Of a stretch of 52,698 nucleotides of DNA, positions 2,937 through 3,986 are shown piece by piece. The position numbers and the translations under genes are program-made. A model generated the notes under the pieces. It was not told the origin of the DNA and searched no databases. It was given only the letters and a program-made list of their open reading frames with translations. The stretch comes from Lachnospiraceae bacterium (lineage in GTDB: Bacteria; Bacillota; Clostridia; Lachnospirales; Lachnospiraceae): contig JAFWDM010000063.1 of the NCBI GenBank assembly GCA_017513005.1, forward strand, positions 1-52,698, written 5' to 3'. The number at the start of each line of letters is the position of its first letter. Position 1 is the first letter of the stretch.

Positions 2937-2984
2937 TGAGATTCATCGCGGTAATAAAGTAAGAGGCAGAAAAAAAGTAGAATC

Positions 2985-3041
2985 GCGGCAGCTTTGCCGC
3001 ACCCTGTAACCGCGAAAGCACAGCTTTCGCGGTTCTTTTTT
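2985..3041 (+). terminator. Rho-independent terminator of putP
   Basis: A 12-bp perfect stem (aaccgcgaaagc 3008-3019 with gctttcgcggtt 3023-3034, loop aca) is followed by a run of Ts. A second small hairpin, gcggca/tgccgc, lies just before it. Confidence 0.9.
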
Positions 3042-3043
3042 CC

Positions 3044-3300
3044 GATCACGGCAAGAACCTGTCCGTGAACGAGCAAGGACCTTCCCGTGATCGGCAGGGA
3101 CCTTTCCGTGATTGGCAAGGACCTTCCCGTGATCGGCAGGGACCTTTCCGTGATCGGGCAGGGACCTTCCCGTGATCGGCAGGGACTTTCCCGTGATCGG
3201 GCAGGGACCTTCCCGTGATCGGCAAGAACCTGTCCGTGATCGGCAGGGACCCTTCCGCGGCCGAGCAGGGGTCTTTCCATAATCGTGCGAATGCCTTTCT
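3044..3300. repeat. 21/22-bp tandem array, about 12 units
   Basis: About twelve imperfect units of the type gtgatcggcagggacctttc follow each other, alternating between 21 and 22 bases and decaying toward the right end (ataatcgtgcgaatgcctttc). The spacing is two DNA helical turns. No coding role is apparent: both strands translate to low-complexity peptides. Confidence 0.9.
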
Positions 3301-3326
3301 ATAAACGTGCGGGGCGGCAGTCAGAG

Positions 3327-3570
3327 ACGGAAGCAGGCGGTATCCTGGCGGACACGCTGGCGATGAGCAATAGATGTACTTGGCGAAGGATCTGTGACGG
3401 GCGGGTCAAATGCACGGCCCTCAAGGCCGGGCATTTGTCGTTTACCTGTTTGAGCATTTCGATCTTTCAGAGCGAAATGCGAGTTTAAACGTTGCCCGCC
3501 CGTCACAGATGCAAGCCTTAGTACATCTTTGCGAAGAGGGCGCGTGTCCAAAGGAACCGCCTGCTTCCGT
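3327..3570. other. Large nested inverted-repeat element, candidate structured RNA
   Basis: Four collinear helices are separated by short mismatched segments: 3327-3341 with 3556-3570 (15 bp perfect), 3350-3357 with 3542-3549 (8 bp), 3373-3380 with 3520-3527 (8 bp), and 3390-3405 with 3495-3510 (16 bp perfect). Two internal hairpins sit at the tip: 3407-3437 (caaatgc/gcatttg plus cggcc/ggccg) and 3454-3480 (gcatttcg/cgaaatgc). There is no credible protein on either strand. It could be a non-coding RNA or a miniature transposable element. The strand is undetermined. Confidence 0.6.
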
Positions 3571-3660
3571 CTCGTCCCCGTCCCGCCCGGAGTCCCACCC
3601 TTTGTTTCGGCTTTAATACAATAATAAAGAGAAAAGACACCTTTTTTTCAAAAAAACCGC

Positions 3661-3690
3661 TTGTATACAGCCCTGCGCTTGTGTTAATAT
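3661..3690 (+). promoter_or_regulatory. Putative sigma-A promoter of the S10 cluster
   Basis: TTGTAT at 3661-3666 and TAATAT at 3685-3690 are separated by 18 bases. It is the best promoter-like pair before rpsJ and would give a leader of about 290 nt. Confidence 0.6.
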
Positions 3691-3697
3691 ACTCATT

Positions 3698-3986
3698 GCT
3701 GTGACATGATAGCTGTGAAGCGTGAGGTTGCTGCCGGACATCCGGCAGGTTTTCCGTGGAGCGAATGTCTGGAGCCCTCTTCAGGAGCCATCTGGAGAGG
3801 AGCTCGAAAATCTGACGACAAGTCACTGTACCGATCAATGTCTGCAGGGCAGCCAACCTGCCTTATGCAGAAACGACGTGTGAGAACACGGTTTTTATTT
3901 TTGAAAGACCGCGATACACACGGGCTAGTGTACAGTCACCGCTTGTCGTACTTAACAAAAAGTGCGAAAAGGAGGCGACTTTTTTT
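3698..3986 (+). promoter_or_regulatory. S10-cluster leader with attenuator-like hairpin
   Basis: This long untranslated region contains a short stem (cgtgt 3877-3881 / acacg 3886-3890, loop gaga) followed by a T-rich stretch, resembling a weak terminator. Upstream, ggcaggtt 3744-3751 is exactly complementary to aacctgcc 3855-3862, and ccgtg 3754-3758 could pair with cacgg 3887-3891 and open the terminator. Regulation by attenuation is inferred, not shown. Confidence 0.4.

What the first reader, a model, noticed from the sequence alone, without database searches (positions are those of the whole stretch)
3327..3570. 244-nt multi-helix inverted element with no coding capacity
Four collinear perfect helices (15, 8, 8 and 16 bp) are separated by unpaired segments on both sides, and two hairpins sit at the tip. 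Random DNA or a simple terminator would not give such alternating helices and internal loops. This is the architecture of large structured RNAs, although a decayed miniature transposable element is the main alternative. It lies just upstream of the ribosomal cluster promoter.
Basis: partly seen in the sequence, partly recalled or inferred. Interest (0 to 1): 0.75.

Follow-up and report, generated by a model that had tools for sequence, protein, structure and literature searches.

The report
Giant folded repeat tied to transposons
The folded stretch is one copy of a family of large hairpin-shaped repeats that have spread between genes in gut bacteria and that, in some relatives, sit inside a jumping gene next to its enzyme, so it looks like a piece of mobile DNA with a carefully kept shape rather than a ribosomal-gene regulator.

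Summary
Confirmed: window 3309-3585 folds into a long interrupted hairpin (z -13.6) with two tip hairpins. Copies covary strongly (42 of 53 pairs with two-sided change) while loops stay conserved. It is not a host RNA gene of the ribosomal cluster: the covariance model finds nothing at the S10 locus of 29 relatives. The family is dispersed: 136 tip matches in 27 of 62 genomes of the genus (reversed control 0). Same-genome copies are 94.6-98.8% identical, with unrelated flanks where compared. All 21 close pairs are divergent. Follow-up of a transposase beside one copy showed that in one subfamily the element lies between an IS1182-type terminal repeat and the IS1182 transposase start (complete end seen twice; a third copy lacks the repeat; unrelated flanks), and a Butyrivibrio plasmid IS1182 carries a comparable long hairpin there. 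But most IS1182 copies in the genus lack it, and the window's subfamily and the Burkholderiales look-alikes show no IS1182-type ends. No Rfam match; RAYT genes read are not flanked by it. Best reading: a folded transposon segment that also travels without a transposase. Whether it acts as ssDNA or RNA is open: wobble pairs are rarer than in a true RNA, yet one strand folds better.

The parts
3309..3585 (+). whole element (folded strand as drawn)
   Evidence: homology to other copies spans about 3309-3578; outermost helix ends at 3585
3310..3317 (+). outermost helix, 5' side (pairs with 3578-3585)
3324..3341 (+). outer helix, 5' side, 18 bp perfect (pairs with 3556-3573); sequence differs in other copies but pairing is kept
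3350..3357 (+). second helix, 5' side, 8 bp (pairs with 3542-3549)
3372..3380 (+). third helix, 5' side, 9 bp (pairs with 3520-3528)
3390..3406 (+). fourth helix, 5' side, 16 Watson-Crick pairs plus a U-G pair (pairs with 3494-3510)
3407..3437 (+). tip hairpin A
   Evidence: 9 of 12 pairs with two-sided change across 27 copies
3447..3454 (+). conserved tip motif TGTYTGAG, 5' of hairpin B
   Evidence: near-invariant in A1; used as pattern
3454..3480 (+). tip hairpin B
   Evidence: 9 of 11 pairs with two-sided change
3480..3485 (+). conserved tip motif CGAGTT, 3' of hairpin B
3494..3510 (+). fourth helix, 3' side
3520..3528 (+). third helix, 3' side
3542..3549 (+). second helix, 3' side
3556..3573 (+). 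outer helix, 3' side
3578..3585 (+). outermost helix, 3' side

Best explanation
It is a solitary, transposase-less copy of a folded non-coding segment that belongs to transposons. SHOWN: copies are dispersed, recently copied within genomes, missing from the same site in relatives, often divergent doublets, and their folded + strand is kept by compensatory change while loops and tip stay conserved. SHOWN for one subfamily: the element lies between an IS1182-type terminal repeat and the IS1182 transposase start, its 5' side towards the gene, and several transposase-less copies keep that terminal repeat at a fixed distance. INFERRED: transposases of this or a related kind move the units in trans, and the folded strand (ssDNA or transcript, not settled) serves the transposon, for example in recognising or regulating its end. 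INFERRED by homology only: that this also holds for the window's subfamily and the look-alikes in other phyla.
For: Fold z -13.6. Covariation: 95.7% of 1430 cells paired, 42 of 53 pairs with two-sided change, score 0.535 against 0.187 in shuffles and at most 0.097 for slid partners. Copies: CM matches in 30 of 62 genus genomes, up to 33 in one; tip pattern in 27 of 62, 136 matches, 0 in the reversed control. Recent copying: same-genome copies 94.6-98.8% identical over about 260 nt; flanks of three same-genome pairs 42-52%. S10 locus: no CM match in 29 relatives, no loose tip. Close pairs: 21 of 21 divergent. IS1182: transposase of L137 (NCBIfam IS1182, 297 bits) starts about 135 nt from the element core; the same junction occurs in L076 and, with the tip deleted, L458; flanks beyond the element are unrelated (37-40%). 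Terminal repeat GGGGCTGTCGCATTAAG at 13 or more of 17 positions in 8 of 63 group-2 copies against 0.05 by shuffling, seven of them 123-126 nt from the tip. Butyrivibrio plasmid IS1182 (L467): terminal repeat, a long hairpin (z -12.0) and a short hairpin before the annotated transposase; R1 scores it 20.7 bits with filters off.
Against: Most IS1182 copies of the genus lack the element: among 30 fetched loci, R1 finds a whole copy beside 2, L465 (the L076 site) and L447 (beside a transposase fragment), plus a weak partial match in L441; L458 is decayed. The own genome has no match to this transposase, and 14 of 27 tip-bearing genomes have none, G046 with 12 copies among them. Group-1 copies (the window's subfamily) and the Burkholderiales set show no IS1182-type ends above chance (0 of 32 and 1 of 92 at 12 or more of 17). 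No whole IS with both ends and the element was seen: L137 lacks the terminal repeat, L076 is cut by the contig end, L458 lacks the tip. No clear target-site duplication. No ORF recurs next to 40 copies in three genomes beyond short ORFs in the repeat and ordinary families. The L467 resemblance is weak by sequence.
Confidence: 0.55

Rival explanations
1. The folded transcript is the active part: an RNA-level mobile element in which the RNA works with the transposase or another enzyme (as bridge RNA does in IS110-type elements; that comparison is recalled), and mobility depends on it.
For: Conserved purine-rich loops and tip; G-U exceeds A-C on the + strand in group 2 (95 vs 23) and the Burkholderiales set (100 vs 29); + strand folds better in 32 of 33, 41 of 42 and 52 of 60 copies; position between terminal repeat and transposase.
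Against: Wobble is scarce in group 1: 21 G-U vs 12 A-C in 1403 cells, against 57 vs 1 in 524 cells for the S10 leader RNA; group-1 copies have no G-U excess on + by folding (10 vs 15). No promoter-like site before the window copy.
Confidence: 0.2
2. IS1182 elements merely insert beside the repeat (target preference), and the repeat moves by some other, unknown means.
For: Many IS1182 copies lack it; group 1 and the Burkholderiales set lack IS1182-type ends; other IS families are said to target REP palindromes (reference title seen).
Against: The junction stretch is homologous in three sites with unrelated flanks; transposase-less copies carry the IS1182-type repeat at a fixed distance.
Confidence: 0.12
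3. A structured non-coding RNA or cis-regulator that serves the host, duplicated like a gene family.
For: Strong covariation; G010 and G028 share a site beside uvrA, with recD2 on the other side in G028.
Against: 36 tip matches in one genome and none in 35 of 62; missing at the S10 locus of relatives; different units at one site in opposite orientation.
Confidence: 0.05
4. A neutral palindrome kept symmetric by template-switch correction between its arms.
For: Arms change together; few wobble intermediates in group 1.
Against: Correction would erase the internal loops, yet the same unpaired loops are conserved; one strand folds better.
Confidence: 0.05
5. A REP/REPIN mobilised by RAYT transposases.
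For: Dispersed inverted doublets; RAYT-like genes in 17 of 27 tip-bearing and 7 of 35 other genomes.
Against: 0 of 20 RAYT-like loci read carry the tip; 8 of 20 carry GGGGACG palindromes in both orientations; far larger than REPs.
Confidence: 0.03

Closest known systems
IS1182-family insertion sequences and their possible non-autonomous derivatives
   Same: One subfamily has IS1182-type terminal repeats and lies between them and an IS1182 transposase start; a Butyrivibrio plasmid IS1182 has a comparable long hairpin there.
   Different: A large covarying folded segment is not a feature I know of this family (recall); most copies in the genus lack it, and the window's subfamily has different ends.
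REPINs (REP doublets; PMC3116915, abstract and passages seen)
   Same: Extragenic, dispersed, inverted doublets, compensatory changes, no own transposase.
   Different: Each arm here is a 200-280 nt interrupted hairpin (REPs are 20-40 bp); RAYT loci read are not flanked by it.
bcr1-bcr18 repeats of the Bacillus cereus group (PMC3446304, passages seen)
   Same: Intergenic, multi-copy, MITE-like, some with conserved secondary structure, often in transcripts.
   Different: No sequence comparison was made here.
Beta-proteobacterial repeat element BRE (PMC3110155, abstract, section 14 and passages seen)
   Same: About 90 bp, multi-copy, mostly intergenic, GC-rich, in Rhodoferax, Polaromonas and other Comamonadaceae; transcripts seen for one copy.
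   Different: Its sequence is in a supplement that could not be opened, so identity with the tip of the Burkholderiales members was NOT tested; BREs also occur in tandem.

Membership tests
IS1182-type transposon or its derivative | IS1182-type terminal repeat at the outer end | tested here: inconclusive
   met in a part of group 2 (8 of 63 copies, 0.05 expected); not in group 1, the window's subfamily (0 of 32 at 12 or more of 17), nor Burkholderiales (1 of 92, 0.85 expected)
IS1182-type transposon or its derivative | linked IS1182 transposase | tested here: inconclusive
   beside L137, L076 and decayed L458 and a fragment beside L447; not beside the window copy, and no match in the own genome
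IS1182-type transposon or its derivative | target-site duplication | tested here: inconclusive
   none evident at the A/B units read; not measured for group 2
REP/REPIN | dispersed palindromes in inverted doublets | tested here: met
   21 of 21 close pairs divergent
REP/REPIN | flank a RAYT gene | tested here: not met
   0 of 20 RAYT-like loci read, of 44 listed
REP/REPIN | units of 20-40 bp | tested here: not met
   about 277 nt in the window
Known RNA families (Rfam 15) | match at gathering score | tested here: not met
   no match on the element (window) nor on copies in 12 loci
Host non-coding RNA gene | conserved at the same locus in relatives | tested here: not met
Host non-coding RNA gene | discrete transcript | not testable with these tools
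   no RNA-seq available
BRE of Betaproteobacteria | sequence similarity | not testable with these tools
   sequences only in a supplement not open here

The most novel reading that the evidence does not exclude
A phylum-crossing class of transposon-borne folded strands, 180-280 nt with a shared tip (TGTYTGAG - hairpin B - CGAGTT beside hairpin A), carried at the end of IS1182-type and other, still unidentified transposons and spreading alone as divergent doublets. The strand would be a structured partner, possibly an RNA, of a DDE transposase.
Probability: 0.33. Interest if true: 0.87.

Novelty: new variant of a known kind. Interest (0 to 1): 0.65.

Why it matters
By covariation alone this looks like a first-rate RNA gene, yet it is mobile DNA; that is a warning for ncRNA discovery. 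If the folded segment is a working part of IS1182-type transposons, it gives a DDE transposon a large structured nucleic-acid partner and a testable system, with named carriers in culture, for how a fold is read during transposition.

Tried and rejected
Regulator of the S10 operon: rejected; the element is upstream of the promoter-like site and missing at that locus in relatives. Known RNA: no Rfam match. Phage or plasmid element: no BLAST match of the window element in either collection, none for one Burkholderiales copy in plasmids; 19 viral contigs matched the tip pattern, none matched R1. Transposase between distant copies: L135 (DUF1963) and L026 (no Pfam match) are not transposases; L365 was read by eye only. 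RAYT: 44 RAYT-like genes by my own label (open frame over 200 aa, under 62 bits) in a truncated list, 31 of them in tip-bearing genomes, 20 of those read; one short Y1 fragment lies 0.4 kb from a tip match (G003 C31). End motif AAATAYGGGTTTGYMG of A/B units: no transposase beside it by eye. Class search with R1: 1 of 245 genomes, the own one, only 11 candidates per genome scored. Other IS1182 records: Subdoligranulum plasmid L468 has a terminal repeat but no tip and only about 110 nt before the gene. Literature: ten searches listed no paper that, from titles, abstracts or passages seen, describes this repeat or such a segment in IS1182; BRE stays possible and PMC8040213's candidate list was not checked. 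Scripts missed L096-L099 through a naming slip; sites with short flanks and, (groups 2 and other), sites with fewer than 20 pairs spanning the tip were dropped before counting.

Full report
Observation. Four long helices and two tip hairpins are present; the outer helix is 18 bp, not 15, and one more helix (3310-3317/3578-3585) extends the element. The fold is far beyond chance (z -13.6, 0 of 200 shuffles). Rfam gives nothing on it at gathering score over the window and only poor matches off the element at E up to 5 in 2940-3986; the S10-Clostridia leader at 3707-3821 is separate.

Relatives. BLAST finds one copy in the own genome and matches in 14 of 99 genomes, the own one included, all in one genus; four of these (G001, G014, G025, G031) are matches of 20-31 bases only. 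An alignment of 27 copies gave a 53-pair consensus: 95.7% of 1430 cells pair, 42 pairs change on both sides, covariation score 0.535 against 0.187 +/- 0.010 in shuffles and 0.059-0.097 for slid partners. The alignment was made by sequence (MAFFT), but the structure was derived from it, so the slid control leans towards it. Unpaired positions are conserved too, above all TGTYTGAG and CGAGTT beside hairpin B.

Distribution. Covariance model R1 finds the family in 30 of 62 genomes of the genus, up to 33 matches in one (a lower bound, 44 candidates scored per genome), and once in the own genome. The tip pattern finds 136 places in 27 of 62 genomes, none for the reversed pattern (sums). A scan of named genomes stopped at its limit with 119 stretches, 80 of them listed. 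Of 77 sites with enough flank in L100-L175, 56 sit on a stem of at least 20 pairs spanning the tip: mostly Lachnospiraceae and Burkholderiales, also an Oscillospiraceae MAG, a Kazan-group genome, a Bacteroidales MAG and Wenzhouxiangella; the other 21 may be chance. Of 22 named genomes chosen for having a match, 12 have two or more. R1 scores Burkholderiales members weakly (best 37.6 bits), so common descent with the Lachnospiraceae family is likely, not proven. A class search with R1 found only the own genome of 245. Named carriers were tied to unnamed handles only by equal contig lengths: RUG12566 = G008, Sarcina sp. DSM 11001 = G028 (NCBI lists it under Clostridiaceae), UBA3692 = G041.

Mobility. 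Copies at different sites of one genome are 94.6-97.3% (G037, three copies), 98.8% (G052) and 98.5% (G011) identical over about 260 nt; flanks were compared for two G037 pairs and the G011 pair, 42-52% identical. At the S10 locus BLAST against 20 relatives never aligns the element (nine intergenic regions read); the check added R1 and a loose tip pattern over 29 relatives: no match. At the locus between an ammonium transporter/P-II gene and a PPDK_N-domain gene, G026 and G008 have 93-98% identical flanks and both carry a two-arm unit bounded by AAATAYGGGTTTGT, but in opposite orientation; arms are about 90% identical where measured, the middle about 50%. Independent insertion or exchange at one site explains this better than simple inversion; no target duplication is evident.

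Doublets. Of the 136 tip matches, 21 pairs lie within 1.2 kb; all 21 are divergent, tip-to-tip 272-1183 bp. In other named genomes, seven of eight pairs within 3 kb are divergent; one in the Oscillospiraceae MAG is convergent. In A/B units the spacer is partly shared between unrelated loci (by eye).

Link to IS1182. NCBIfam calls it IS1182 (297 bits, cut-off 270); an IS3-like fragment lies on the other side (65 bits, below cut-off). Its start is about 135 nt from the element core, facing the element's 5' side. The same junction occurs in L076 (G045, contig ends 30 codons into the gene; R1 32.1 bits) and in L458 (G017), where the middle of the element with its tip is deleted; the stretch between element and gene is homologous in all three while flanks beyond the element are 37-40% identical. 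L458 and L076 begin with GGGGCTGTCGCATTAAG or a one-base variant, the terminal repeat of other IS1182 copies here (L438, L456); L137 lacks it. In 63 group-2 copies that repeat, at 13 or more of 17 positions, occurs in 8 against 0.05 by shuffling, seven of them 123-126 nt from the tip; in group 1, the window's subfamily, 0 of 32 and in the other set 1 of 92 reach 12. A Butyrivibrio plasmid IS1182 (pCY186) has terminal repeat, a long hairpin (z -12.0) and a short hairpin before its transposase; R1 gives 20.7 bits with filters off, nothing with filters. Against: of 30 IS1182-hit loci in the genus, only L465 (the L076 site) and L447 (a transposase fragment) hold a whole R1 match and L441 a weak partial one. 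The transposase is found in 13 of 27 tip-bearing and 5 of 35 other genomes (p 0.005, phylogeny not controlled), not in the own genome. This changed my odds: a transposon origin is now the stated best reading, and a rival (mere targeting by IS1182) was added.

Which strand, and RNA or DNA. The + strand folds to lower energy in 32 of 33 group-1, 41 of 42 group-2 and 52 of 60 other copies. G-U exceeds A-C in group 2 (95 vs 23), the other set (100 vs 29) and, with its fixed U-G pair, group 1 (39 vs 10), on structures predicted from these alignments. Leaving out the fixed pair, group 1 has 21 vs 12 in 1403 cells, against 57 vs 1 in 524 for the S10 leader, and no G-U excess on + by folding (10 vs 15 copies). 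One folded strand is selected, with less wobble than RNA usually shows; that leans to ssDNA for group 1 and is open for the rest.

RAYT. Y1 transposases are found in 42 of 62 genomes. RAYT-like ones by my label occur in 17 of 27 tip-bearing and 7 of 35 other genomes (p 0.0007), yet 0 of 20 such loci read carry the tip, while 8 of 20 carry GGGGACG palindromes in both orientations.

Neighbours. Copies lie beside varied genes; 32 vs 24 downstream neighbours face them with the 3' end in 66 Lachnospiraceae copies, 30 vs 12 in 70 others (crude ORF calls). The gene before the window copy is a sodium/solute symporter, best match PutP but under that model's cut-off.

Literature. Seen: PMC3116915 (abstract, passages), PMC3110155 (abstract, section 14, passages), PMC3446304 and PMC2267715 (passages), PMC8040213 (passages), PMC4666352 (abstract, outline, passages), PMC2864571 (passages); the rest search listings only. 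None of what was seen describes this element.

Noticed in passing
window 3049-3256: Tandem array of about 10 copies of a 21-22 bp unit (CGGCAGGGACCTTCCCGTGAT) between the symporter's terminator-like hairpin and the element; not seen by eye in the nine relatives' intergenic regions read.
   Followed up: partly
L019, L026, L031, L040: Outer stem modules look duplicated on both arms of some copies, as if one element had inserted inside another (by eye).
   Followed up: no
L042, L043: 3' part of the element duplicated directly downstream.
   Followed up: no
L034 (G008 C37), arm B: An insert of about 145 nt inside the tip region of one arm.
   Followed up: no
L417-L420, L424, L425, L427, L430: RAYT-like genes with short GGGGACG palindromes in both orientations nearby, apparently ordinary REPINs of this genus.
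   Followed up: partly
L125, L132, L141, L144: In a Bacteroidales MAG, a Kazan-group genome and two Burkholderiales the tip is followed by a second hairpin with TACTTT...AAAGTA-like arms, hinting at a cross-phylum subfamily.
   Followed up: partly
L074, L182: Spacer beside these transposase-less copies resembles the short hairpin stretch that precedes the IS1182 transposase, as if left over from it.
   Followed up: partly
window 3707-3821: S10-Clostridia ribosomal protein leader (RF03136, 67.4 bits), as expected before rpsJ.
   Followed up: yes
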